From IMG/VR virus record IMGVR_UViG_3300004369_000629, positions 1-35,029 of that record: a stretch of DNA of 35,029 nt. One strand, given 5' to 3'. The notes below the pieces were generated by a model. The model saw only the letters and a list, made by a program, of their open reading frames with translations. It was not told the DNA's origin and searched no databases. The position numbers and the translations under genes are program-made. Of the stretch, positions 17,381-35,029 are shown piece after piece (position 1 is the first letter of the stretch; the number at the start of each line of letters is the position of its first letter). Source of the DNA: a virus.

Positions 17381-17646
17381 TTAAAAATATTACTGTAAAC
17401 TTTTAGTTTTTCAATCTTTTCGTCTTTGGCTCGATTTATATCTTCTTCTTTAACTAGTCCGGCTTCTATCATTAGCCCAATCATGCATACCAAATCGCCA
17501 ACTTCCATACTTAAATTTTCACGTTGCGTAGCGCCGGACTTGTGACTATTGTCTATACCAAAACGCACACACTTGCTGATTGCTTGTATAACTTCAGCGC
17601 ATTCTTCTTGGGTTATCCCTAAGATTTCTCGTTCTTTTTCAGTCAT
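17377..17646 (-). CDS. MazG-like nucleotide pyrophosphohydrolase
   Basis: The 89-residue protein is a single MazG-like helical domain. It has EECAEVIQAISK (residues 14-25, metal-binding Glu residues) and MEVGDLVCMIGLM (47-59) with the E-x-x-D pair. These enzymes hydrolyse nucleoside triphosphates to monophosphates. MazG-like proteins are common in marine T4-like phages and may alter nucleotide or alarmone pools. It is the first gene of an early operon. Its promoter -10 box ends six bases before the ATG, and no ribosome site is seen, so a leaderless start is likely. Confidence 0.8.
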   Translation of the reverse strand: MTEKEREILGITQEECAEVIQAISKCVRFGIDNSHKSGATQRENLSMEVGDLVCMIGLMIEAGLVKEEDINRAKDEKIEKLKVYSNIFK

Positions 17647-17652
17647 AACACT

Positions 17653-17681
17653 ATTATAAGCGATTGCTTATACTATGTCAA
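17653..17681 (-). promoter_or_regulatory. Consensus sigma70 promoter abutting the MazG-like start codon
   Basis: The minus strand has TTGACA (17676-17681), a 17-base spacer, and TATAAT (17653-17658), followed by AGTGTT and the ATG. Transcription would begin at or next to the A of the ATG. The promoter overlaps the last codons of the upstream radical SAM gene. Confidence 0.85.
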
Positions 17682-23171: not shown

Positions 23172-24329
23172 TTATTTTTCCTTATATAGATCTATGAATA
23201 TTTTACTACTATCAACGCCACGTCTGGCGTCCATTACTGCTAACTGCTTAAATGTTTCTGTTAAATTCTTTTCAAACGGTTGTTGTATATACTTTAGCAA
23301 ATTTTGATAACTGTTTTCCAACAAAAATCCCGGATGTTCTGCGATGCGTTCTTCTAACTGTTGCTCGACTAATTGTAACATCTTATCTGGCAAATGTCTA
23401 ATATTTAGGTACTCAGGAAACAACAACGGACCAATTACAAAAGCGTTTGGGTGAAAGTTCCAATCGTTCATAAACTTGTCCACAAACTTAAACACACTGA
23501 ATGGATTAAGTACAAAATACAACATGTTGAATGTAATTTTATGATCCAAATCTTTTATTTTTCTTAGGTTCCTGCAGAATGTTGCCCATTGTCCCCCATG
23601 TCGTATATAGTCGTACTCGTCACCCATTGTTTCTGCACTAACTGTCCAGTGTACATTCTTAAACTTACACGCTAAATCGAACACACGAGTATTTGTATGA
23701 CTTAAATTGGTGTTGATGCGTAAATTAACATCTGGATTGACTAATAACAGTTTCTCTAGTAGTTCTTCGTTTTCCTTCATTAACAAGGGCTCGCCGCCAG
23801 CCATGTAAACATGTTTTAGTGTATCCACATGTTTGAAGATATATGCTTTGAAGTCATCTCGTTGTTGTTTATTGGGTGTGTCTACTTTTATACCTAACTC
23901 GTTTGCCCATTGACTGCTAAAGTCTGCGTTACAATACACACAACTAAAGTTGCAGAGATTGGTCCAACGCACATCTATTTTTTCTAACCTATGCGCATTT
24001 ACCTTATCATACGTATCCAGTGGTACCTGCTTGAGTTCACGCAGGTAAAAAACTCTATCACTAATAATATCAAACTTATTCTCCCCTTGCTCTAGTTCAT
24101 AACAAGGATCACAGCGTTCACCCGGCTCATTGTTTAACATTTTGATCCGTGTTGCTTGATTGTTTTCACCGTTTAATATTTGCTCTATACTTTGTTCACG
24201 TATATTGCCAATGGGCGCACTGGATCTAATACAGGTTTTAACATTACCGTCAAAGTTATACATTAACCCAGTCCATGGGATAGGACAAAAGTTACGATTA
24301 GTTAAGTAATCTTTGGGTTCCATACCCAA
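23172..24329 (-). CDS. Twitch/SPASM-type radical SAM protein
   Basis: The 385-residue protein has C126xxxC130xxC133 (LCNFSCVYC) and MAGGEPLL, the SAM-binding GGE. An N-terminal cysteine-containing region (C15, C33, C73, C76) resembles the auxiliary cluster region usually found C-terminally in SPASM/twitch proteins. The C-terminal part is helical. Related proteins are common in marine T4-like phages but are uncharacterised. It overlaps the SDR gene by 28 bases, and its stop lies two bases before uvsX, so it is part of the operon that reaches into the recombination genes. Confidence 0.8.
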   Translation of the reverse strand: MGMEPKDYLTNRNFCPIPWTGLMYNFDGNVKTCIRSSAPIGNIREQSIEQILNGENNQATRIKMLNNEPGERCDPCYELEQGENKFDIISDRVFYLRELKQVPLDTYDKVNAHRLEKIDVRWTNLCNFSCVYCNADFSSQWANELGIKVDTPNKQQRDDFKAYIFKHVDTLKHVYMAGGEPLLMKENEELLEKLLLVNPDVNLRINTNLSHTNTRVFDLACKFKNVHWTVSAETMGDEYDYIRHGGQWATFCRNLRKIKDLDHKITFNMLYFVLNPFSVFKFVDKFMNDWNFHPNAFVIGPLLFPEYLNIRHLPDKMLQLVEQQLEERIAEHPGFLLENSYQNLLKYIQQPFEKNLTETFKQLAVMDARRGVDSSKIFIDLYKEK

Positions 24330-24853
24330 TATTCTCCAATTGCTATTTCTTCTACTTGCATGTCAGTGCCCGAGTCTAATATGTCAACAATACGTTTAGC
24401 CCATGCATCAGGGTTTACACCACTATCTCCTTGTGTGTTTACCTTTCCTGGTTTGACTAAGCAAAGTTTAGGCAGAGTATGCAGTCCACGTAGTTGGCGA
24501 ATGGCTTCTTCCAGTGTTGTTTTTTCCACGTGGTACTTTAACATATCAAACCCAGGCAAACAACTAACTGGTTCACTTGTCATAAGTGTACCGATATTAA
24601 CGATCTTCTTGTGTAGTTTACCTTGCCATGCTTCAAACACAGCAAACAATAGTTCTGTTTGTGCGAACCCAGCTTGAGCGTTATTAATAAACAAGTCGCA
24701 AGGCTCTATATATTTTAACATTTTCATTGTGTTTCTAATGTTATTACCATCACGACGACTAAGTCCAACAACTTCGTGGCCTTGTTCTTTGTAAATTTTT
24801 GCAAATGCTTGGCCAATGCCAGCACTGTGTCCTGTTATTGCTATTCTAGCCAT
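24302..24853 (-). CDS. Short-chain dehydrogenase/reductase (short form)
   Basis: The 183-residue protein has the NAD(P)-binding TGHSAGIG (residues 7-14), NNAQ at 57-60, and the catalytic Y107xxxK111, followed by VKPGKVNT. A Ser (Ser93 or Ser97) lies suitably before the Tyr. The classical length is about 250; this one is about 65 residues shorter, mainly after the catalytic Lys. The overlap with both neighbours and its place between an oxygenase-like and a radical SAM gene suggest a step in one pathway. The substrate is unknown. Confidence 0.75.
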   Translation of the reverse strand: MARIAITGHSAGIGQAFAKIYKEQGHEVVGLSRRDGNNIRNTMKMLKYIEPCDLFINNAQAGFAQTELLFAVFEAWQGKLHKKIVNIGTLMTSEPVSCLPGFDMLKYHVEKTTLEEAIRQLRGLHTLPKLCLVKPGKVNTQGDSGVNPDAWAKRIVDILDSGTDMQVEEIAIGEYWVWNPKIT

Positions 24854-25386
24854 TCAATTGGCTCCTTGTGAAATGTAAAACTTGCTACAATCCTTGGTAT
24901 CTTTGCATTGTCAGAGTACTGTTCGACACTGTGCGCAATACTGCTGTTGAACACTATAGGATAGGGCATGTCACGATACTCTGCTAATAACTCTCCCGTT
25001 GCTCCAGATAAATCATATACTTCACTGCCAAACTGATTTTTTACTTTTGGGTAGTTTTCTAGATTGTCTACTGTAAACCATTTGTTTGTCCAGCCTTTGG
25101 TATTAAGCACAGGAAAGTTCATTTTTGCTATAACAGGCTTTTCGTCTACGTGCATAGGTAAATCATTAGTATCTGTTATATATGTTATAGCACTGTCTTT
25201 AACTAATAACTTGTGTTGTTTAAAAAAGTCAAGCAGTGCAGGACTACTAGCAAACAAATTGCGTGTGTTTAAAAACTTCCAAGGGCTACCTTTGTACAGA
25301 CTAATGCTGTCGTCTGCAGATATATAGTCGATTATTTCGTTTGCAATGTCTGTAACGTCTGCTTTGATTTCAACGAAAGGCTTCAT
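24841..25386 (-). CDS. Probable Fe(II)/2-oxoglutarate-dependent oxygenase-like protein
   Basis: The 181-residue protein has H79xD81 (MHVDE) and, about 70 residues later, His152 (IAHSVEQ) followed by Arg165 (PRIVASFTF). This HxD-H-R order and spacing is the metal and 2-oxoglutarate site of the double-stranded beta-helix oxygenases. Such enzymes hydroxylate or otherwise oxidise proteins and small molecules. It overlaps both neighbours by 13-17 bases within the radical SAM block. The family is inferred from the motif spacing. Confidence 0.6.
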   Translation of the reverse strand: MKPFVEIKADVTDIANEIIDYISADDSISLYKGSPWKFLNTRNLFASSPALLDFFKQHKLLVKDSAITYITDTNDLPMHVDEKPVIAKMNFPVLNTKGWTNKWFTVDNLENYPKVKNQFGSEVYDLSGATGELLAEYRDMPYPIVFNSSIAHSVEQYSDNAKIPRIVASFTFHKEPIEWLE

Positions 25387-26314
25387 CGATCCCTCTAACT
25401 TTATCTTGTTCTTCTAAGAATGCTTCTAATTCAAAGTCATTGTTTCTTTGGGTTGCTACTAAATCAAACTGTCCAGCGCATGCACTGGTAAACTTGTTTC
25501 TATACTTAACACTCAGCACATCTGGCTTTTCCAAAAATGCATAACTGTGATCTAACTTGTTCTGCTTTACAAACTTGATAATGTTCTTAAAGTCTCTAAT
25601 GTTTAGTGCGCTAACTGTTGTCCAAGTGTTAAGTTTTATATTCATGTCCTTGTATATCATTAGGTTACTATAAAACTTATCCCATTTGATAGGCCAGCGT
25701 ACATAATCATGCACATCGCCTATACCATCTAAACTTGCTGTTACAGTTACATCTACGCCACTTGCTACAATGTCTTCAAGTTCTTCAATTACCAAACTGC
25801 AATTGGTATTAAGGCGTAATGACTTTAGGTTAGGTGGTAAGTTTTGCAATATCCGTTTGTAATTTTTACTTGCACTTGGTTCGCCACCGTTAATATCCAA
25901 GTGTACAACACGCTCAAGTGGTAAGTTCCAGTATGCGTTGCTGTTGTCTACTACAGGATATATCTTGTTGGTTAAACTGCCAATCTTTGTGCTGTAGGAC
26001 GCATCACAACTAAAGCATGCACTGTTGCATACGTTGTCCAGTATGCCGCCTACTGTGAGATAATCATGTTTGGTTTGTTGTTTGTCAAATTCTATAGCAT
26101 TTTGTCTAATGCTTTTGCCGTTGACACTTTCAGTATCACGACATCGTATGCATTCTGCAGGCCAGTCCTCATTCATGTGAATACGATACATCCAGTCGCT
26201 GTGTTCCATTTCTTCAAGACTGGCAAACTTTGGTGGATCCACCATGTGCCCACAACGGCTTACAGTACCGCCTGGGTTGAATCTAACAAAATGTTCTAAT
26301 CGAGGACACTGCAT
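25370..26314 (-). CDS. Radical SAM protein, twitch type
   Basis: The 314-residue protein has C96xxxC100xxC103 (VCNSACFSC), INGGEPSASKN (GGE), and TASLDGIGDVHDYVRWP, typical of radical SAM enzymes of the twitch/SPASM group. An N-terminal cysteine group (C3, C21, C55, C58) resembles that of the protein at 23172-24329, so the two are probably paralogues. It overlaps the oxygenase-like and sulfotransferase-like genes by 17-19 bases. Confidence 0.8.
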   Translation of the reverse strand: MQCPRLEHFVRFNPGGTVSRCGHMVDPPKFASLEEMEHSDWMYRIHMNEDWPAECIRCRDTESVNGKSIRQNAIEFDKQQTKHDYLTVGGILDNVCNSACFSCDASYSTKIGSLTNKIYPVVDNSNAYWNLPLERVVHLDINGGEPSASKNYKRILQNLPPNLKSLRLNTNCSLVIEELEDIVASGVDVTVTASLDGIGDVHDYVRWPIKWDKFYSNLMIYKDMNIKLNTWTTVSALNIRDFKNIIKFVKQNKLDHSYAFLEKPDVLSVKYRNKFTSACAGQFDLVATQRNNDFELEAFLEEQDKVRGIDEAFR

Positions 26315-26892
26315 AAATCTTTTGATCTCTGTATAACTTCTTTGTATACTTGTGGATAACGATGCTTTACTGTTTGCACTATCTGTTTAAACGTAACCAT
26401 ACGTCCTAGTAGTTCACCTACTAGAACTTGATCCAACTGTAGATAAAATTCAACTTTATCGCTTACACTTACTAATTTATTCTTATTGCTTACATTGTGA
26501 TGTAATTTGGTAATAGTGTTTAGTTGGTCCAATGGACGTAATATAAGTTTAGCATCAGTAAAACGCTGTAAATTAAGTAGCCAGTATAACTGTGGCGCAT
26601 AGTGATTGTTGAGAAACAGGTAGTTTTCAACAAAATGTAAAACTGTATAGTCATCTAGTTGGATGTCTTCAACAAACTTGGTTACACCACTTACATAACG
26701 TTCAACAGGATCGCGGACAAATACTTCAATTATGTCTAGTTGTTTTATTTCTTCTAGCTCTAGTTTTCTAAATCCAGAGTTGTGTAAACTAGTCGATCCG
26801 TTTTTGTGTATAGGATACACAAATCTTCGCGGAGCAACTTCTAATACCTCGCAGGAGTCCGGAAATAATATTGTATCAATTTGACTTAACAT
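26296..26892 (-). CDS. Sulfotransferase-like protein
   Basis: The 198-residue protein has YPIHKNGSTSL (residues 26-36), matching the PAPS 5'-phosphosulfate loop of carbohydrate sulfotransferases, and VFVRDPVERYVSG (57-69), the 3'-phosphate-binding block with the RDPxxRYxS pattern. These enzymes move a sulfo group from PAPS onto a hydroxyl of a sugar or other acceptor. The length is short but covers both motifs. It overlaps two radical SAM genes and is part of the accessory block. Confidence 0.7.
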   Translation of the reverse strand: MLSQIDTILFPDSCEVLEVAPRRFVYPIHKNGSTSLHNSGFRKLELEEIKQLDIIEVFVRDPVERYVSGVTKFVEDIQLDDYTVLHFVENYLFLNNHYAPQLYWLLNLQRFTDAKLILRPLDQLNTITKLHHNVSNKNKLVSVSDKVEFYLQLDQVLVGELLGRMVTFKQIVQTVKHRYPQVYKEVIQRSKDLCSVLD

Positions 26893-28012
26893 AGTTTAAT
26901 ACATCAATGTCTATTCTATATTTTAAAAGTTCGTTTAGGTCAGACTCTGTAGTAGCTTTAGGTGCGCAGTACCCACAAACACAAATATCCTTTACGCACT
27001 TAATTACTGGCATGGTTTTTGTTTCTAGTTGTGATCTAAGTGTGTCTAACATTACTTGGTAATTGTTTATATTACCCAACGGCTCAACACGGTTAGTGGT
27101 TACACTTGTTAGACAATCTTTTGTGCTAGAATAAACTTTACCGTTGTATTGCCTAAGAAATAAAAAGTACCAATTAACGCTACAGTTCCAATCTTTGAAT
27201 CCTTGCTTGTTGATATACAGTAAGTTTTCTTTATAATTCCCGTTCACACACATTTTACGTCCGCCACAGCAAGCTCTACCTTTTGCTATACTTAATACTT
27301 TTTCATCAGATTCGTCAACTTCGTTACCTGTGAAGTTTGCTTGTATTTTTTGAAACTGCTTGCCAGTATAGGCCCATTGTTCTTCTGTGTTGTCTAGTCG
27401 TTTAAGGAAGAATGGTAGACTATTGTCCTTGCAATACTGTACCATTCGTTCTACATCATCAAACATTTCTTTATCGTTGTGCATCAGCATCACACACTTG
27501 AAACTTTTGTTTATCTTTTTCAGTTGCAATATGTTTTTCTTATACTGTTCTTTTTGCTTGGGTATGTTCTCAGGATGATAACTTACAATAAACTCGTCAA
27601 TATATGGAATAATTTTACTCCACATCCTGGTACCAACAATACCATTTGTAGTGCATGTAATTGTAAGTTCCCAACGATCTTTATACTGTTGATATTTCTG
27701 CTTTACTAATTCTAGGATTTTAAGTATGTCCGGGTGTACTAGGCTTTCACCACCGTATACATTCAGCACAACTTTTCTATTGCTTTCTTTCCGATACTGC
27801 ATGTACAAGTCTACATATTCATACATGAAGTCAATGGACTTTACACACTCCGCCAGTGGTGGATGCTGTGTACTATTATCATGGCCACCAAATTCACCTA
27901 TAGCACAATAGGAACAATCTAAATTGCATTTCTTAGTCAATTCCCAATCTAGTAGAAAAGCAGGAGGTGCTGAGGGGTCAAGGCCGAATGTAATAGATTT
28001 AATTGGATTCAT
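26876..28012 (-). CDS. Radical SAM/SPASM-type protein
   Basis: The 378-residue protein has C29xxxC33xxC36 (KCNLDCSYC), VYGGESLVHPDI (GGE), and TCTTNGIVGTRMW. The C-terminal part is Cys-rich: GRACCGGRKMC and CVKDICVCGYCAP, a likely auxiliary iron-sulphur site. SPASM-type radical SAM enzymes often modify ribosomal peptides or protein targets. It is the first gene of the six-gene block downstream of gp32. No strong ribosome site is visible before the ATG, and the only separation from gp32 is a hairpin terminator, so it may be expressed by read-through. Confidence 0.8.
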   Translation of the reverse strand: MNPIKSITFGLDPSAPPAFLLDWELTKKCNLDCSYCAIGEFGGHDNSTQHPPLAECVKSIDFMYEYVDLYMQYRKESNRKVVLNVYGGESLVHPDILKILELVKQKYQQYKDRWELTITCTTNGIVGTRMWSKIIPYIDEFIVSYHPENIPKQKEQYKKNILQLKKINKSFKCVMLMHNDKEMFDDVERMVQYCKDNSLPFFLKRLDNTEEQWAYTGKQFQKIQANFTGNEVDESDEKVLSIAKGRACCGGRKMCVNGNYKENLLYINKQGFKDWNCSVNWYFLFLRQYNGKVYSSTKDCLTSVTTNRVEPLGNINNYQVMLDTLRSQLETKTMPVIKCVKDICVCGYCAPKATTESDLNELLKYRIDIDVLNYVKSN

Positions 28013-29195: not shown

Positions 29196-30629
29196 TTATT
29201 TTTTGTCCAAACCGCTTAGCCAACGAATCATATTCAAATCTTCATCTTCGCTTACGGTCCCGACACCAGCTGGGGGAGTGTTGCCCGCGGGCATTGTTGA
29301 TGCCGCATATGTGTCATTGTCTGGTTCTTGTGGGCGTGGTGCAGGAGCGGTTGTGTTTACTGCTTGTGATTGCAGTATTGCTTCAAGTTCTTCTGCTAGG
29401 TCTGGTTCACCGTTTTGGGCTAGCCAGGCAGCAATCATGGGCCTTGCATCTACATCTGGTCCTTGCTTGCTTAAATCTTGTAACTGAGCTGATAAATCAT
29501 CGTTATCAACAAAACTAATACCTGCTATTGCGGCAATAGCATCCTGTCCGTCAACACCAACTGTGATTGGATCGTCGAATAGTTCTGTCAGCTTATCAGT
29601 TGCGGCTGGGCCAAATGTTTCTTCTGTAACGTCTGTGGCCCAATCTTCAAATTGACTTGTGTAGGCTCTATGAACATATGGTAATGCGTCATTAAGCCTA
29701 TCGTCAAAAATCTTCTTAACAAAACGTTCACGCATTTCATCTATATCAACATTATCTTCTGGTTTGGCATAGTTTTCTGCCATTTGTAAAAGTAATGCGT
29801 GACCATTACGTCCTTTGAAACTTTCTAAATTCTTTTTAACTTCTTGATAGCGACCTATTGCCGCTTCAACCATGCGTGTTGTTTCTGTATCTTCAAATGT
29901 TCTGTTGTTCATGCTACGAGCAAAGTGTCGCATAGCACTCATTTCTTTAACCATTTCAGCAATAACTTCGCTACCGTTATCGTTAATCTCTCCACCACGA
30001 TTTAGGTGATTTGCTAATGCTCTAGCACCATGCAAGTTTTTATGGTCTAATAGGAAACGTTCGCCTACAGGAGTTTCGATAAAAATCTTGCTGATGTTTC
30101 TAGCACGGGCACCATGTTTGTCTGTATCTACTGATTCTACGTGCTTGATAATAATCTTGTGTTCACCTAGGTCTGCATAACTGGTATGCTTATCTCTATT
30201 GTCGCCATATAACTTTGCTTCTGCTACTATTTCATCAGTATCAAAAGTACCGTCAGCGGAACTTTGTTGTTTTAGGTTCCGCAAATCAAGATTGCTACGG
30301 TTTATATCTCTAACATCAAAATTTAACATATTTCTTTTCGCAAACGTGCGCAAATCTTTTAAAAAGTCAAACCATTTTTTTGTATCAAGATCGGACATTT
30401 TTTCTGTGATATTTACACCGTAATAAACTTTAAGAGATTCTTCGTCAATTACGCTAACAGTAACATTTCCGTAGTTCTCTCCATCTTCTCCTACGTAATC
30501 AAAGTTAAAAAATCTTGCACGTTCAGGATCGCTAGTACGATTGGCTTTGTCGTTGCCCAAACTAATATTGTCAAAGCGAGCACGGATTTTTTCAAATAAA
30601 GAAGCTGATATGTTATCTAATTCACGCAT
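29196..30629 (-). CDS. Unknown 477-aa phage protein, late expressed
   Basis: No family is recognised. The 477-residue protein starts MRELDNISASLFEKIRARF, has a mixed N-terminal half (FFNFDYVGEDGENYGNVTVSV), a helical middle, a Pro/Ala-rich linker (TTAPAPRPQEPDNDTYAAS), and the C-terminal peptide LNMIRWLSGLDKK. That last peptide recalls the RLAGI motif near the start of the 63-aa protein at 33295-33486. A late promoter lies five bases before the ATG, with no ribosome site. A structural or internal virion role fits this timing but is not shown. Confidence 0.55.
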   Translation of the reverse strand: MRELDNISASLFEKIRARFDNISLGNDKANRTSDPERARFFNFDYVGEDGENYGNVTVSVIDEESLKVYYGVNITEKMSDLDTKKWFDFLKDLRTFAKRNMLNFDVRDINRSNLDLRNLKQQSSADGTFDTDEIVAEAKLYGDNRDKHTSYADLGEHKIIIKHVESVDTDKHGARARNISKIFIETPVGERFLLDHKNLHGARALANHLNRGGEINDNGSEVIAEMVKEMSAMRHFARSMNNRTFEDTETTRMVEAAIGRYQEVKKNLESFKGRNGHALLLQMAENYAKPEDNVDIDEMRERFVKKIFDDRLNDALPYVHRAYTSQFEDWATDVTEETFGPAATDKLTELFDDPITVGVDGQDAIAAIAGISFVDNDDLSAQLQDLSKQGPDVDARPMIAAWLAQNGEPDLAEELEAILQSQAVNTTAPAPRPQEPDNDTYAASTMPAGNTPPAGVGTVSEDEDLNMIRWLSGLDKK

Positions 30630-30633
30630 TACA

Positions 30634-31179
30634 TTATTTATGCGTAAAAGGGCCGAAGTAAGTGTAACTGCTTAGTCGCAACTGACCTTCGGGGAGTACG
30701 GTAGGAACTCCATGATATTGATCTGGTCCGTTGATCATCAAGTAACCTGTATTAACCTTATAAGGGAATGTGTAACGTATTGTTTCGTCTGGGTTATAAA
30801 ACACTGTACCATGTTCTGACCCTGCATTATCTAATAGATATATCTGCATTGCTATTGGTAAGTCACCATCTGTGTGCATTTTACAAGTATATGGAGAGTA
30901 ATCAAGCCAAAAACTACTCCAGCAATCATATTCTGGAAAGTGTCCATTGATCGAATCTGCAATATCAAGACGTAGCGTATTTAGATGCTTATCCAATTCA
31001 AACAATATGCTGTCATGATGTGGTAATAATTTTCGTCTAGGCCACTCAAATTGTCCTTCTTGAAGTTCCCATTCGTAACTCCAAAAATCTTCATCCTGAA
31101 TCTTATCCACAATATCAGCAGAGTAGACATCTTCTACCAAGAATAGATTATGTTGCTTGTCAACAGGAGTAATCTTCAT
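30634..31179 (-). CDS. Fe(II)/2-oxoglutarate oxygenase-like protein
   Basis: The 181-residue protein has H102xD104 (MHTDGD), followed by MQIYLLDN, His156 (QYHGVPTV) and Arg168 (QLRLSSYTYF). This is the full HxD-H-R site of 2OG-dependent oxygenases, with the usual double-stranded helix strands around it. Phages often carry such enzymes; targets are mostly unknown. It starts four bases inside the end of the terminase gene, so it is translationally coupled to it. Its 3' end contains the late promoter of the next gene. Confidence 0.75.
   Translation of the reverse strand: MKITPVDKQHNLFLVEDVYSADIVDKIQDEDFWSYEWELQEGQFEWPRRKLLPHHDSILFELDKHLNTLRLDIADSINGHFPEYDCWSSFWLDYSPYTCKMHTDGDLPIAMQIYLLDNAGSEHGTVFYNPDETIRYTFPYKVNTGYLMINGPDQYHGVPTVLPEGQLRLSSYTYFGPFTHK
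30635..30642 (-). promoter_or_regulatory. Late promoter (CATAAATA) abutting a start codon
   Basis: CATAAATA lies exactly five bases before the ATG at 30629, inside the last codons of the oxygenase-like gene. Transcription would begin at the A of the ATG, the same arrangement as at 7835 and 33492. Confidence 0.65.
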
Positions 31180-32741
31180 ATCATGATAAATGGCATTGGT
31201 GCTACAAAATCATCTACACCATCACGCATTGCACTATCCAATTCACTGTCAAAACTCTGTAGTGCCTGTGTCATTCGTAACGCCAACAAACTGGCCATTA
31301 CTAAATCATCACGCTCGCCCTGTTTTGCACTAAAACTAGAGCCATGTGCCACAAATGTTTTAAGTTCGCTAATTAAATTTTGACTATGAATAGTCATCTT
31401 TTTACCTTCAATTAAACTCTTGAACTTTGCACACACTGTAATTTTACTTTTGTTGGTTGTGGTAAAGCCTTTACGATGCAATCTTGACGACCCTGCAGTA
31501 ACAGGTTGACTAAGAAATGTTCCTTTAATATTCTCTTCGCCCATCTCAGCAATCACTACCAGTCCTGCTTCGCCTAGTGTATTGTTTTCTATGCTATAGT
31601 AAATGTCGGTGGCTTTTCCTGTTAGTTCTGCAATATGATCACAGATTTCTTTAAGTATAACAATTTGTCGCTGTATAGGTGTTTTGTTGTGTTGCCACTC
31701 GCCGCACTGTATCATGGTAGGCAACTCGAATATTTGTATGGCCGCAGGGTCACCGCCTGTGCCAAGACTTGGGTCTAATCCCACTACGTATGTTTTACCT
31801 TTTTCGGGCTTTTTATACCAACGTACTTGGCCTTGTTTTTCTATAGGGTCTTTGCCCTCCATGTCAATCAGTGTGGTGCTGTTGATCAGTGTTTCATCGT
31901 ATATTAAGAATTCACAGCCGTGTTCACGTCGGAAACGTTCTTCGCCGATACGTCCTATTTCTTCTTCTTTCCACTTGTCGTCCCTGTCGGGATGTTCCCA
32001 CCAATCAGATTGGTATGCAAAGAATCCGTTTACTCCTAACCCATCAACAGTTGGGTTGCCATATTCGTCAATGTTCTTGTTTGCTTGTTTCCAAATAAAC
32101 GCAAACTGATCCTCATCACTGTTTGGAGTTGATGTGATAATTGCCTGACCACCAGTACTGAGTGTGGGCGATATGGATGTCCAAAACTCACGGGCAATAG
32201 TAGGTCTCACAAATGCAAACTCGTCACAGTATAGTAGTGTAATACTCATACCTCGTCCAGTTGTTTCAGTGGTTGTTTGCGAAACAATACGTGACCCATT
32301 TTCAAAGTCTATACTTCCTTTGTTATAGCTCACTACACCAGCACGTATAAAGTCAGGACATAGTTCATACGCATACCTAATACGTTGCATAATCTCCTGT
32401 GCACCTGTGTACTTGTGTGCGGCAATAAGAATTGTGCTGTCTGATTTAAACATGGCCCGCCACAGCAAATAGCCCGCGGCAGTGGTTGTTTTACCAGTCT
32501 GCCTTGGCATTAGACTTATGCTAAAACGATTTTTGTGATACGCATTAATTAATCTCTTTTGATACTCAAACGGCTTGTACATCATCTTGCCTTTAACAGG
32601 ATGCTGTATATTAAAATAGTTACTCATAAAGTGTTCTGGCCCTGTATCTGGGTCTGCGCACTTCATAAATTCTTGTATTTGCTCCTGTGTGAAGTTTACC
32701 TTCTGATAAGGAGTCTTAATAATGTTTGCTTCGTTTGACAT
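31176..32741 (-). CDS. 17: Large terminase subunit (gp17)
   Basis: The 521-residue protein has the ATPase Walker A LMPRQTGKTTT (residues 78-87), Walker B LLYCDE with Asp173/Glu174, and a C-terminal RNase H-like nuclease. The nuclease has VVGLDPSLGTGGDPAA near 325-340, SIENNTLGEAG, and GERDDLVMASLLA with the last catalytic Asp. It translocates and cuts DNA into the head. T4 gp17 is 610 residues; marine relatives are about 540. The start overlaps the -35 box of the divergent HNH promoter. Confidence 0.95.
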   Translation of the reverse strand: MSNEANIIKTPYQKVNFTQEQIQEFMKCADPDTGPEHFMSNYFNIQHPVKGKMMYKPFEYQKRLINAYHKNRFSISLMPRQTGKTTTAAGYLLWRAMFKSDSTILIAAHKYTGAQEIMQRIRYAYELCPDFIRAGVVSYNKGSIDFENGSRIVSQTTTETTGRGMSITLLYCDEFAFVRPTIAREFWTSISPTLSTGGQAIITSTPNSDEDQFAFIWKQANKNIDEYGNPTVDGLGVNGFFAYQSDWWEHPDRDDKWKEEEIGRIGEERFRREHGCEFLIYDETLINSTTLIDMEGKDPIEKQGQVRWYKKPEKGKTYVVGLDPSLGTGGDPAAIQIFELPTMIQCGEWQHNKTPIQRQIVILKEICDHIAELTGKATDIYYSIENNTLGEAGLVVIAEMGEENIKGTFLSQPVTAGSSRLHRKGFTTTNKSKITVCAKFKSLIEGKKMTIHSQNLISELKTFVAHGSSFSAKQGERDDLVMASLLALRMTQALQSFDSELDSAMRDGVDDFVAPMPFIMI

Positions 32742-32763
32742 GGTGATATATACTTTATATACT
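32735..32763 (+). promoter_or_regulatory. Sigma70 promoter for the HNH gene, overlapping the terminase start
   Basis: TTGACA (32735-32740), a 17-base spacer and TATACT (32758-32763) are followed by seven bases and the ATG at 32771. Transcription would begin next to the ATG. The -35 box covers two bases of the divergent terminase start codon, so polymerase here could also affect terminase expression. Confidence 0.8.
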
Positions 32764-32770
32764 ATTACTT

Positions 32771-33298
32771 ATGGCACATACACTCTTACTTAACAAAGAT
32801 TACACCCCTATATCAGTTCTACCACTGTCTGTAATACATTGGCACCACTCAATCAAATTAATGTTCTTAGGGCGCATACAAGTGCTGGAAACCTACCCAG
32901 ATTGGCACGTAAACAGCGAAAAACTTACCTTAAATGTGCCTAGTGTAGCAGTTACCAAGGAATACTTTAATCCTAAACGTTATGTACGTTTTAGCAGAGC
33001 AAATATTTATTTGCGTGATTTATACCAGTGTCAATATTGTACAGATGCATTTGACTTTAAGGATTTATCCATAGACCATGTCGTACCACGTGCCCGCGGT
33101 GGTAAAACTTCTTGGGAGAACTGTGTAACTTCTTGCAAAGGGTGTAATACTCGCAAGGCTGATAAATTACAAAAGCCAGTACGCAAACCGTTTAAACCAG
33201 ACTACTGGGGACTAGCATCAGCATGGCGCAACAGTCCTGTGGAAATCAAAGACCCTAAGTGGGAACAATATTTGGGACTTAAAGCAAAGGTTGCTTAG
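32771..33298 (+). CDS. HNH endonuclease
   Basis: The 175-residue protein has C87xxC90 (YQCQYC), then LSIDHVVPRARGG (Asp102-His103), Asn117 in SWENCVT, and C122xxC125N126 (SCKGCN). This is a complete zinc-finger HNH (McrA-like) nuclease. An N-terminal 85-residue domain (LNKDYTPISVLPLS) is shared with phage and bacterial relatives. It is the only plus-strand gene in the right third of the window, with its own early promoter. It may act in DNA processing or as a mobile nuclease; no split gene next to it supports homing. Its stop overlaps the convergent small gene by four bases. Confidence 0.85.
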   Translation: MAHTLLLNKDYTPISVLPLSVIHWHHSIKLMFLGRIQVLETYPDWHVNSEKLTLNVPSVAVTKEYFNPKRYVRFSRANIYLRDLYQCQYCTDAFDFKDLSIDHVVPRARGGKTSWENCVTSCKGCNTRKADKLQKPVRKPFKPDYWGLASAWRNSPVEIKDPKWEQYLGLKAKVA

Positions 33299-33486
33299 TA
33301 AGGCTTCTCGCCTGTGAGATATGGGCGACTGAACCACAACTTAAACCATTCGGGTGTGCCTGGTTTAATTTTCCGCTTTTTCATTATTTTAGCTTTTTCG
33401 TTTGCAGTATAACTGATATTACTGAGAGACTTTGATTTCTTCTTCTCAGTAATTCCTGCTAGTCGTTGTAGTTCTGCTATGGTCAT
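33295..33486 (-). CDS. Small basic late protein (63 aa)
   Basis: The 63-residue protein starts MTIAELQRLAGITEKKK. The RLAGITE segment resembles short N-terminal peptides I know from many small proteins of marine T4-like phages. The rest is Lys/Arg-rich with an aromatic end (GTPEWFKLWFSRPYL). A late promoter lies five bases before the ATG, and no ribosome site is visible. The (I/L)xE site ITE (12-14) may be a prohead protease site. The function is unknown; a minor virion protein is possible. Confidence 0.6.
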   Translation of the reverse strand: MTIAELQRLAGITEKKKSKSLSNISYTANEKAKIMKKRKIKPGTPEWFKLWFSRPYLTGEKPY

Positions 33487-33491
33487 ATTAT

Positions 33492-33499
33492 TATTTATG
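33492..33499 (-). promoter_or_regulatory. Late promoter (CATAAATA) abutting a start codon
   Basis: CATAAATA lies five bases (ATAAT) before the ATG at 33486. It covers the stop region of the upstream SGNH-like gene. This is the third case of the same spacing. Confidence 0.65.
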
Positions 33500-34163
33500 T
33501 ACCGATTATGCTCATAATCTTCTCAGCGGCTAGTGTTTGTGTAGGATAGGTAGTGTGAAACACTTCGGGCACAGGATTATCATTTAGTTCTGCGGCTTCG
33601 TTATATATTTCTACAACTTGTTTCTTTAGATTAATAACCTGTATGTTCTGTTCTCTAGCACGACTCTCGTAACCAGCAAACATTTCATCATCTAAGAAAC
33701 CTTGTAAACTAGCATCGTATAGTGTATTAAAATAACTTTTAACAGCGTCAATCACAGCAGGGTCCAATCCTAAATCCATTTCTCCCATTATGCAAGGGAT
33801 AGTATGGCTTACAAAAGGCTCTGGACCGTTTACGTTGTATCTGATGTTTGCTAGTGGGTTACCTGGAGAAAACTGTGCATTCCAATTTGGTTTTGCTGGT
33901 ACAGTCATTCTAGCAGGATCTGTACCAGCATAGATTATAACATCAGGATCTAGTTTCAACGCTCTGTGTAGTTGCATAAAAATGGCGGAATTGGATATCC
34001 CGCCACGTGCTAGGTTTGTTACTGTGCCTTCAAGTTGCTCACTAAAGTGTTTGCCAGGAGCACTCTCATCACGTGAACAGAAACTGTCGCCACAGACTAT
34101 GATTTCTAAGTTACTTCTTTTCCATCTGCTTGACTGCTTTTTCATACGCTTCTTGAGTAACAA
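33495..34163 (-). CDS. SGNH/GDSL-like hydrolase
   Basis: The 222-residue protein has IIVCGDSFCSRDES, with the nucleophile Ser27 in the GDS block, then NLARGGISNSAI with block II Gly54. Block III GxND is changed to AGTDPAR. A C-terminal His203 lies in VFHTTYP, preceded by Glu200 rather than Asp. Such enzymes remove acyl or acetyl groups from sugars or lipids. The start is uncertain: the longest reading overlaps the nuclease gene by 53 bases, and an in-frame ATG lies at 34145. The changed block III makes full activity doubtful. Confidence 0.65.
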   Translation of the reverse strand: MLLKKRMKKQSSRWKRSNLEIIVCGDSFCSRDESAPGKHFSEQLEGTVTNLARGGISNSAIFMQLHRALKLDPDVIIYAGTDPARMTVPAKPNWNAQFSPGNPLANIRYNVNGPEPFVSHTIPCIMGEMDLGLDPAVIDAVKSYFNTLYDASLQGFLDDEMFAGYESRAREQNIQVINLKKQVVEIYNEAAELNDNPVPEVFHTTYPTQTLAAEKIMSIIGT

Positions 34164-34593
34164 TGCCTTCTGCTAGTAAACGCTTTCTGTTGACTTCATG
34201 TGCCGCTTGTGTATCTTCTTTGCTTCCGCCGAAGTAAGGAACACAGTGTCCTTCTGCTTCCATGATTTCAGTTACACGTTTCATTTCGCCGTTGTATTCT
34301 ACTTTGAAGTCACCTAGGATACGTCCAAACTTGCCTTTCATATCCTCACCACTTTTGTCTTCTGTGGTAATAAGTTTACCACCGTGCTTCATAAGTTCTT
34401 TTAGTCTTGCTTTGGCGGCTTCACCAAACAAGTCCTCTACTCTATCGCTTGTTCTTGACTCTGGGGTATCTATTCCCATGATTCGCACACGTTCATCTTT
34501 TAAACAAACGCCGAATCCCAAATCAATGTCTACGTCTACTGTATCGCCATCAACTACGTTAATGACGGTTACGTCATACTCATTTTGTTGCAT
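34111..34593 (-). CDS. Staphylococcal-nuclease-like (thermonuclease) protein
   Basis: The 160-residue protein has VVDGDTVDVDID (residues 13-24, metal ligands), RVRIMGIDTPE (35-45), EAAKARLKEL with the catalytic Glu58 region, and KFGRILGDF with Arg91. This is a complete SNase core that cuts DNA or RNA. No signal peptide is seen, so it acts inside the cell or in the virion. An AAGGAG site lies before the ATG. The role may be host DNA breakdown, but family members differ. Confidence 0.85.
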   Translation of the reverse strand: MQQNEYDVTVINVVDGDTVDVDIDLGFGVCLKDERVRIMGIDTPESRTSDRVEDLFGEAAKARLKELMKHGGKLITTEDKSGEDMKGKFGRILGDFKVEYNGEMKRVTEIMEAEGHCVPYFGGSKEDTQAAHEVNRKRLLAEGIVTQEAYEKAVKQMEKK

Positions 34594-34610
34594 CTTGATT
34601 GCTCCTTTTG

Positions 34611-34623
34611 AATTACTGTAATT
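34611..34623. repeat. Perfect palindrome upstream of the nuclease gene
   Basis: AATTAC-T-GTAATT is a perfect palindrome 18 bases before the nuclease ATG, between it and the upstream gene. It could be an operator. The flanking TTATTATTATT run on the plus strand is AT-rich and shows no clear promoter. Confidence 0.35.
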
Positions 34624-34654
34624 ATTATTATTTTATATTACTAAATGTACTACA

Positions 34655-35029
34655 CTACCACGCCCTGCAACTCCAGTAACGAGCTTTGGTCTTGGGACCT
34701 GGATTATCGCAGTTATGACGTGCTCTAAAACTTTTTCTTCTTGCTGGATTGCTCTTTTTAATACTCATTGTTTTTTGGCCGGCCTTTTTAGCACTTGTGC
34801 CACCGTGTCCAAAATTGACTTTTTTAACATTGCCTGTCTTTGGATCTTTTACATAAACCTTAAACTTCTTAACATCACCACGTGTTGGCTTGTTTAGTTT
34901 AACAGTACGTCCTTGGTATTCTGCTTCGTCTAAATTAAACTTTTCTTTTGCTTCTGCTTTTGACATGCCGTACTCTGCGTTGAACTCTTCGTCTGTAAGC
35001 TCTTCCATGGCAAGAAGCATTTCTTTTAC
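34655..35029 (-). CDS. Conserved basic phage protein with C-terminal Cys motif, 5' end cut
   Basis: The frame continues to the window edge (VKE before the first visible Met), so the true start may lie outside. The visible part (124 residues) has an acidic start (EELTDEEFNAEYG), a Lys-rich middle (PTRGDVKKFKVYVKDPKTGN) and HGGTSAKKAGQ. The C-terminus is RRKSFRARHNCDNPGPK followed by ARYWSCRAW, with two Cys. I recall similar C-termini in proteins of marine T4-like phages but cannot name the function. A DNA-binding or head-associated role is possible. Confidence 0.6.
   Translation of the reverse strand, partial: VKEMLLAMEELTDEEFNAEYGMSKAEAKEKFNLDEAEYQGRTVKLNKPTRGDVKKFKVYVKDPKTGNVKKVNFGHGGTSAKKAGQKTMSIKKSNPARRKSFRARHNCDNPGPKTKARYWSCRAW

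What the first reader, a model, noticed from the sequence alone, without database searches (positions are those of the whole stretch)
32735..32771. HNH gene promoter embedded over the terminase start codon
A lone plus-strand HNH gene faces terminase. The -35 box of its promoter overlaps the terminase ATG, so binding of polymerase to this early promoter could hold terminase transcription back until late. HNH proteins next to terminases assist packaging in some phages, although here the orientation is opposite.
Basis: partly seen in the sequence, partly recalled or inferred. Interest (0 to 1): 0.5.

Follow-up and report, generated by a model that had tools for sequence, protein, structure and literature searches.

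The report
Nuclease promoter overlapping terminase gene start
In a group of uncultured giant bacterial viruses, a DNA-cutting enzyme gene and the DNA-packaging motor gene start back to back, and the switch sequence of the first lies on the start of the second; the overlap is real and recurs in relatives, but the motor gene's late timing probably comes from its own late-type switch.

Summary
Confirmed: TTGACA-17-TATACT (11/12) lies at 32735-32763 (+); its -35 overlaps the terminase (TerL) start codon by 2 nt, and the HNH ATG follows the -10 by 7 nt, so the mRNA may be leaderless. The genes are divergent, not facing. Divergent HNH-TerL recurs in 80 of the 80 best HNH loci kept. Of 60 distinct intergenic regions, 10 carry a sigma70-type promoter of at least 11/12 (0.15 expected from shuffles; 1.35 if TerL bases are kept); in all 10 the -35 touches the TerL start codon. 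Seven of the ten add a T4-late-type box for HNH; the window's clade has none. In TerL relatives without HNH, 37 of 38 upstreams have TAAATA 4-8 nt before the TerL ATG (shuffles 0.45), so TerL is ancestrally a leaderless late gene and needs no occlusion to be late. In the window that box is only TATATA, inside the sigma70 spacer; mutual exclusion is possible but untested. HNH is under purifying selection, has full-length bacterial homologues, and its predicted fold is PLMP-like plus HNH (IshB-like, kin of IscB). A packaging role is unproven.

The parts
32735..32740 (+). -35 hexamer TTGACA of the HNH promoter; last two bases lie in the TerL start codon
   Evidence: hexamer also present in L001, L003 and L083-85
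32758..32763 (+). -10 hexamer TATACT of the HNH promoter, 17 nt after the -35 and 7 nt before the HNH ATG (leaderless placement)
32739..32741 (-). start codon of the terminase large subunit, overlapped by the -35
32771..33298 (+). HNH nuclease gene, 175 aa; predicted PLMP-like domain (about 1-70) plus HNH (about 70-148); zinc Cys and DH/N residues conserved
31176..32741 (-). terminase large subunit (TerL), 521 aa, T4-superfamily type
32747..32752 (-). candidate degenerate late box for TerL (TATATA, 5 of 6 to TAAATA, 5 nt before the ATG), inside the HNH promoter spacer
   Evidence: weak by itself, since TATATA is not enriched at this distance in 1.04 Mb of window and relatives
33492..33498 (-). 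late-type box ATAAATA 5 nt before the ATG of the 63-aa ORF; a transcript from it would run antisense through HNH into TerL
   Evidence: same distance in L001 and L124, not found in L003
33295..33486 (-). 63-aa ORF convergent with HNH, 4-nt overlap of 3' ends

Best explanation
The site is a real early-type (host sigma70-like) promoter that makes a leaderless HNH mRNA from a divergent HNH-TerL module. In this phage group many genes are started by one of two promoter kinds, sigma70-like and T4-late-like (TAAATA), and both are often placed so that the start codon is the first base of the mRNA. TerL is by ancestry a leaderless late gene. Where HNH sits divergently beside it, the two promoters are squeezed into about 10-90 bp and can overlap each other and each other's start codons. 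In the window's clade HNH is driven by the sigma70-like site, so most likely early, and TerL late through a decayed box and/or late read-through from 33498. Shown: sequence, positions, recurrence, enrichment. Inferred: timing, start sites, polymerase used. Mutual exclusion of the two promoters is physically likely but not shown to matter.
For: Near-consensus hexamers, 17-nt spacer, ATG 7 nt after the -10. 10 of 60 distinct regions have a site of at least 11/12; shuffle mean 0.15, 1.35 with at most 5 in 300 draws when TerL bases are kept; all 10 touch the assigned TerL start codon. Exact TAAATA 4-8 nt before the HNH ATG in 20 of 60 (shuffles 0.95) and before the TerL ATG in 16 of 60 (1.2). TAAATA exactly 5 nt before 57 of 3527 candidate starts against a mean of 1.6 at distances 9-16 in 1.04 Mb; 15 of 78 ATAAATA sites in 318 kb. 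Sigma70 sites of at least 11/12 with an ATG 3-9 nt on: window 2 of 6, G001 7 of 28, G025 8 of 40, G012 7 of 51, G028 3 of 13, G004 1 of 7, and 0 of 10 in the rest. TerL without HNH: 37 of 38 have the late box, 28 at exactly 5 nt. gp55-type late sigma (phrog_234) in 8 of 12 long records, 5 of the 8 with the pair. Pair in 80 of 80 kept HNH loci. HNH dN/dS 0.084-0.117 in the close group.
Against: No transcript data. 25 of 60 regions have none of the motifs tested (no sigma70 site of 10/12 or more, no exact late box for either gene), so the grammar does not explain every member. The 10 sigma70 regions are related: 4 state changes on each tree of 56 rows, so few independent events. TTGACAT arises by itself from a TerL start ATG-TCA-A (8 of 60 regions, 3 of them without a site of 11/12). 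L083-85 and L004, close relatives, do not keep the promoter. TerL's own box in the window is only 5 of 6. 4 of 12 records gave no gp55 match, G001 among them (fragments), and none of the 40 window ORFs scanned (of 45 taken as genes) hit a gp55 family. The host, and so the polymerase, is unknown.
Confidence: 0.6

Rival explanations
1. One reading: RNA polymerase bound at the early HNH promoter blocks TerL transcription until late, so the overlap is a timing device.
For: The -35 overlaps the TerL start codon in 10 of 10 regions with a site of at least 11/12, and in the window the best TerL box candidate lies inside the spacer. Footprint overlap follows from geometry (inference).
Against: 50 of 60 regions have no such promoter; TerL has its own late-type box in 37 of 38 relatives without HNH, so lateness does not need occlusion; close relatives L083-85 and L004 lack an intact site.
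Confidence: 0.15
2. Coding and composition by-product: the -35 is just the reverse complement of a TerL start ATG-TCA-A, and the AT-rich gap supplies a -10 by chance.
For: 8 of 60 regions have TTGACAT at the TerL start, 3 (L011, L016, L124) without a site of 11/12; the whole-window count of 6 is not beyond the shuffle maximum of 6.
Against: 10 regions against 1.35 (maximum 5 in 300) when TerL bases are kept and only the gap is shuffled; five of the ten use another register (CATTGAC, 1-nt overlap); ATG at the same leaderless distance as at other genes. Relatedness of the ten inflates the excess.
Confidence: 0.2
3. TerL is expressed by late read-through from the ATAAATA promoter at 33498, through HNH in antisense, which also shuts HNH down late. 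This can hold together with the best explanation.
For: Late box exactly 5 nt before the 63-aa ORF, at the same distance from TerL (within 1 nt) in window, L001 and L124; no terminator-like site found on the minus strand between it and TerL.
Against: Such a site within about 2.3 kb was found in only 8 of 54 regions with enough sequence, so it is not general; L003 lacks it.
Confidence: 0.2
4. HNH is a free-standing homing endonuclease parked beside its target TerL.
For: Split inteins interrupt TerL at two sites in relatives; L150 and L164 have no endonuclease ORF of 90 aa or more between the halves while HNH sits next door; HNH and TerL identities disagree in the L128 group. Terminase neighbourhoods are endonuclease hot spots and collaborative homing is described (PMC10448857, passages read).
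Against: HNH is present in 17 of 17 TerL loci of 66.9% identity or more with enough upstream and is under purifying selection; AU tests do not reject congruence (p 0.10 and 0.575); near full-length homologues are widespread in bacterial genomes.
Confidence: 0.1

Closest known systems
Overlapping early and late promoters of T4-like phages (RB49, S-PM2, Syn9; PMC2984593, section 10 read)
   Same: One gene served by both a sigma70-type and a late-type promoter; seen here for HNH in 7 of the 10 regions with a site of at least 11/12
   Different: Here the promoters are divergent to TerL, overlap its start codon and are placed for leaderless mRNAs; the window's clade keeps only the sigma70 site
T4 late promoters (8-bp TATA box from -13, no -35; gp55; PMC2988020, passages read) and the late motif of jumbo phage CBB (PMC5259590, passages read)
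   Same: TAAATA core; gp55-type sigma in relatives
   Different: The box commonly ends 5 nt before an ATG, so by T4 spacing (my inference) +1 is the A of ATG
HNH next to terminase in HK97 (discussion passage of PMC10448857 read; gp74 name recalled)
   Same: HNH gene adjacent to the terminase gene and conserved there
   Different: Opposite orientation and a T4-superfamily TerL; cooperation in cutting not testable here
IshB (PLMP-HNH protein without RuvC; Altae-Tran et al. 2021, recalled; the name seen in one passage of PMC12477157) and IscB/IsrB (PMC9581776, passages read)
   Same: Predicted N-terminal PLMP-like fold plus HNH, 175 aa, no RuvC
   Different: The PLMP motif is not visible by sequence; little room for an upstream omega RNA (short gap, and a leaderless start in the window); no Rfam hit

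Membership tests
Sigma70-type promoter | -35 and -10 hexamers, 16-18 nt apart | tested here: met
   11/12, 17 nt
Sigma70-type promoter | Start site just after the -10 and use by host polymerase | not testable with these tools
   no transcripts; host unknown
T4-type late promoter (TerL in the window) | TATAAATA-like box about one helical turn before +1 | tested here: not met
   only TATATA, 5 of 6, at 5 nt; TAAATA exact in 16 of 60 pair regions and in 37 of 38 HNH-less relatives
T4-type late transcription (the phage group) | gp55-type late sigma encoded | tested here: met
   phrog_234 in 8 of 12 long records (5 of the 8 pair records), 0 of 14 control genomes; no match in G001, G026, G027, G013. 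The window is a fragment; none of the 40 window ORFs scanned (of 45 taken as genes) hit a gp55 family
IshB-like PLMP-HNH protein | N-terminal PLMP fold | tested here: met
   by predicted fold only: domain alone, 216 chains re-aligned, 10 rows with Z 2 or more; the nine above Z 5 are IscB/IsrB N-termini (best Z 7.1, rmsd 3.2, 53 residues; 9k30 Z 6.5, 1.8 A, 48), the tenth is IF3 at 2.4. Z under 8 is modest, and Foldseek alone gave no significant hit, its top rows being unrelated
IshB-like PLMP-HNH protein | PLMP sequence motif | tested here: inconclusive
   hhalign against the DtIsrB PLMP segment: E 0.057, probability 1% over 7 columns; profile search of PDB sequences: no hit
IshB-like PLMP-HNH protein | HNH domain and no RuvC | tested here: met
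   PF14279 and PF01844 in 42 of 42 members, no RuvC family listed; 175 aa
IscB-type RNA-guided nuclease | RuvC plus HNH, cognate omega RNA | tested here: not met
   no RuvC match; NF040563 42.8 bits against a cut-off of 175; no Rfam match in 30000-35029
HK97 gp74-type packaging HNH | Works with terminase in cos cutting | not testable with these tools
   biochemistry needed; similarity to gp74 not tested
T4 endonuclease VII (gp49) | Endonuclease_7 profile match | tested here: not met
   PF02945 not among the families of HNH or its aligned relatives at E 0.1 (42 members); a phrog named endonuclease VII (phrog_1035) matches residues 80-148, E 7e-14
Free-standing homing endonuclease | Sporadic presence, mobility, cut site in neighbour | tested here: inconclusive
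   presence not sporadic among the loci fetched; AU tests not significant; cutting untested

The most novel reading that the evidence does not exclude
A repressor-free early/late switch: an IshB-like (PLMP-HNH) nuclease, kin of the ancestors of IscB and Cas9, is a standing partner of the packaging motor in a large group of jumbo phages, and the two genes are wired by reciprocally overlapping leaderless promoters, host sigma70-type for the nuclease and T4-late-type for the motor, so that only one can be occupied at a time; the nuclease may take the place of endonuclease VII, which was not found in the 8 pair records searched.
Probability: 0.15. Interest if true: 0.65.

Novelty: new variant of a known kind. 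Interest (0 to 1): 0.45.

Why it matters
It gives a testable promoter grammar for a large uncultured jumbo-phage group in which many early and late genes appear to be made as leaderless mRNAs, the late ones from boxes set so that the start codon is the first base. It links that grammar to a conserved nuclease-motor gene pair and shows that a promoter can be built on the start codon of the neighbouring essential gene. The nuclease's likely IshB-like architecture places a kin of IscB/Cas9 beside the packaging motor.

Tried and rejected
Occlusion as the cause of TerL lateness: judged unnecessary, because the late box is ancestral to TerL. HNH as endonuclease VII: no PF02945 match. Complementary distribution of HNH and a separate endonuclease VII: phrog_423 and PF02945 were found in 0 of 8 pair records and in 1 of 4 records without the pair, so it is not seen. 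HNH transfer between lineages: identities looked incongruent, but AU tests gave p 0.10 (HNH data) and 0.575 (TerL data), so it is not claimed. A single origin of the tandem sigma70+late type (six rows) is not rejected on either tree (p 0.236 TerL, 0.437 HNH). CBB gp55 by tblastn found nothing in the fetched relatives; the family profile did, in other records too. A guide RNA near HNH: Rfam search of 30000-35029 gave no match. PADLOC hits of HNH (best 25 of 26 shown) cover only its HNH region. More distant HNH proteins are not beside TerL: L087 (37%) has no TerL in its 10.3 kb, and partial matches in G011-G017 lie elsewhere in those records. Literature on leaderless late transcription in T4-like or jumbo phages: none recognised in the listings; on a divergent HNH/TerL promoter: none in the listings. 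These searches cover open-licence PubMed Central papers only. One search stopped with a script error and was redone; (54 regions) is superseded (60 regions).

Full report
Observation. The window is a 35,029-base virus record classed as linear. The site is as described: TTGACA at 32735-32740, TATACT at 32758-32763, spacer 17, HNH ATG at 32771. The TerL start codon is 32739-32741 on the minus strand, so two bases are shared. The genes are divergent with a 29-nt gap, not facing. The nearest TerL relatives among phage records are PA5oct-type jumbo phages (about 53% identity); in PA5oct TerL and the HNH homologue lie about 111 kb apart. Other genes in the window are of T4-superfamily kind: UvsX, UvsY and a single-strand binding protein.

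The pair is conserved. In 80 of 80 HNH loci TerL lies divergently upstream, 10-84 nt away in 76 and 643-876 nt away in 4 (distances from aligned starts). A more distant HNH (L087, 37%) has no TerL in its locus. Of TerL loci with at least 200 nt upstream, 17 of 17 with identity of 66.9% or more have HNH, and 0 of 58 below; the cut was chosen after seeing the data, and the HNH scan also holds pairs whose TerL is 60-66% identical. HNH is under purifying selection (dN/dS 0.084-0.117 in five pairs of the close group, three of them with dS above 1; TerL 0.037-0.052 in the matching pairs), and C87, C90, C122, C125, D102, H103, N117 and N126 are invariant in 42 aligned proteins.

Promoters in the gap. 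From 100 loci (window, L001-L019, L122-L201; several are the same contig twice), 9 were dropped (2 without HNH, 2 without a nearby TerL ATG, 5 with a gap over 200), leaving 91 loci and 60 distinct regions. Ten have a plus-strand site of at least 11/12, against 0.15 in 200 shuffles. In all ten the -35 overlaps the assigned TerL start codon, by two bases (window, L001, L003, L175, L196) or one (L008, L155, L167, L171, L178). With the TerL bases kept and only the gap shuffled, 1.35 regions are expected, at most 5 in 300 draws. The ten are not independent: 4 state changes on each tree of 56 rows, L167 not included. Seven of the ten also have TAAATA exactly 5 nt before the HNH ATG; the window, L001 and L003 do not. 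Exact TAAATA 4-8 nt before the ATG was found for HNH in 20 of 60 (shuffles 0.95) and for TerL in 16 of 60 (1.2). Against this, 25 of 60 regions have no sigma70 site of 10/12 or more and no exact late box for either gene. L083-85 (HNH 90%) keep TTGACA but have TATACA; in L004 the best site is 7/12. TerL starts that read ATG-TCA-A give TTGACAT on the other strand by themselves (8 of 60 regions), so the -35 may have been recruited from coding sequence (inference).

Promoter grammar of the group. ATAAATA stands exactly 5 nt before an ATG opening at least 50 codons in 15 of 78 occurrences in 318 kb; of the other 20 7-mers of the same make-up, shifted overlaps of the same box reach 7-9 at their best distance and the rest at most 5. 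In 1.04 Mb and 3527 candidate starts, TAAATA occurs 57 times at 5 nt against a mean of 1.6 at 9-16 nt, with a second mode at 17-22 nt. T4 late promoters have an 8-bp box that begins at -13 (PMC2988020, passages), so a 5-nt spacing would put +1 on the A of ATG: leaderless mRNAs (inference). Sigma70-type sites also show a leaderless mode: of sites of at least 11/12, 2 of 6 in the window, 7 of 28 in G001, 7 of 51 in G012, 8 of 40 in G025, 3 of 13 in G028, 1 of 7 in G004, and 0 of 1, 4 and 5 in G005, G006-8 and G009 have an ATG 3-9 nt after the -10. A gp55-type late sigma profile matches 8 of 12 long records, 5 of 8 of those with the pair, and 0 of 14 control genomes.

TerL timing. Of the 60 TerL loci L021-L080, none of which shows HNH, 38 distinct upstreams could be read (20 duplicates, 2 dropped): 37 have TAAATA 4-8 nt before the ATG, 28 of them at 5, none with a Shine-Dalgarno by a simple pattern; shuffles give 0.45, at most 4 in 300. 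TerL is therefore most likely ancestrally a leaderless late gene. Beside HNH the exact box is found in 16 of 60 regions. In the window the best candidate is TATATA at 32747-32752, inside the HNH promoter spacer; TATATA is not enriched at this distance, so this is weak. A second source of TerL transcripts could be the late box at 33492-33498, whose transcript would run antisense through HNH; no minus-strand terminator-like site was found between.

Reading. The overlap is a real, recurrent layout. That it delays TerL is not needed and not shown. The most likely working: HNH is made early from a leaderless sigma70-type mRNA, in some lineages also late; TerL is made late. Overlapping early and late promoters in front of one gene are described for RB49, S-PM2 and Syn9 (PMC2984593, section 10). 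Mutual exclusion of the two polymerases at this strip is plausible from geometry.

The HNH protein. The predicted model has mean pLDDT 90.4. Residues 70-148 match HNH domains of Cas9, IscB and the Gme HNH nickase. The N-terminal domain folded alone (pLDDT 87.0) matches IscB and IsrB N-termini in all nine rows above Z 5 (best 7.1), the tenth row being IF3; Foldseek alone gave no significant hit and sequence comparison none. The architecture is that of IshB (recalled from Altae-Tran 2021; the name seen in PMC12477157). Whether it binds RNA is unknown; a leaderless start and a short gap leave little room for an upstream omega RNA.

TerL inteins. In relatives TerL is split by short-N split inteins at two sites, sometimes with an endonuclease ORF between; fragment lengths resemble AceL-TerL and GOS-TerL (PMC11766414, passages). 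The window's TerL is intact.

Noticed in passing
L124 (= L083-85 contigs), L150, L157, L158, L164, L182: TerL is broken by short-N split inteins, near residue 172 or 276; an ORF that looks like an endonuclease or is of unknown kind lies between the halves in L124, L157, L158 and L182, none of 90 aa or more apart from the intein halves in L150 and L164. They resemble the AceL-TerL and GOS-TerL inteins.
   Followed up: partly
window 17646-17681 (-): A perfect TTGACA-17-TATAAT promoter ends 6 nt before the ATG of a nucleoside triphosphate pyrophosphohydrolase-like gene: another leaderless sigma70-type layout, also in G001.
   Followed up: partly
L132, L134, L137, L144, L147, L148: Mirror image of the finding: with a 10-nt gap, a TAAGTA late-like box 5 nt before the TerL ATG reaches the first base of the HNH start codon. 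TAAGTA at 5 nt is mildly enriched, 8 against 0.9.
   Followed up: partly
L128, L135, L141, L143: HNH is 76-79% but TerL only 69-70% identical to the window's, unlike other relatives; AU tests did not establish transfer.
   Followed up: yes
L307 (Agrobacterium phage Atu_ph07), 1501-3692: TerL is annotated as two adjacent CDS; could be another interrupted terminase.
   Followed up: no
L183, L185: Exact TAAATA boxes 5 nt before both divergent start codons in a 40-nt gap: a symmetrical leaderless late pair.
   Followed up: no
window 23172-28012 (-): Three radical-SAM-like proteins of unknown role in one cluster.
   Followed up: no
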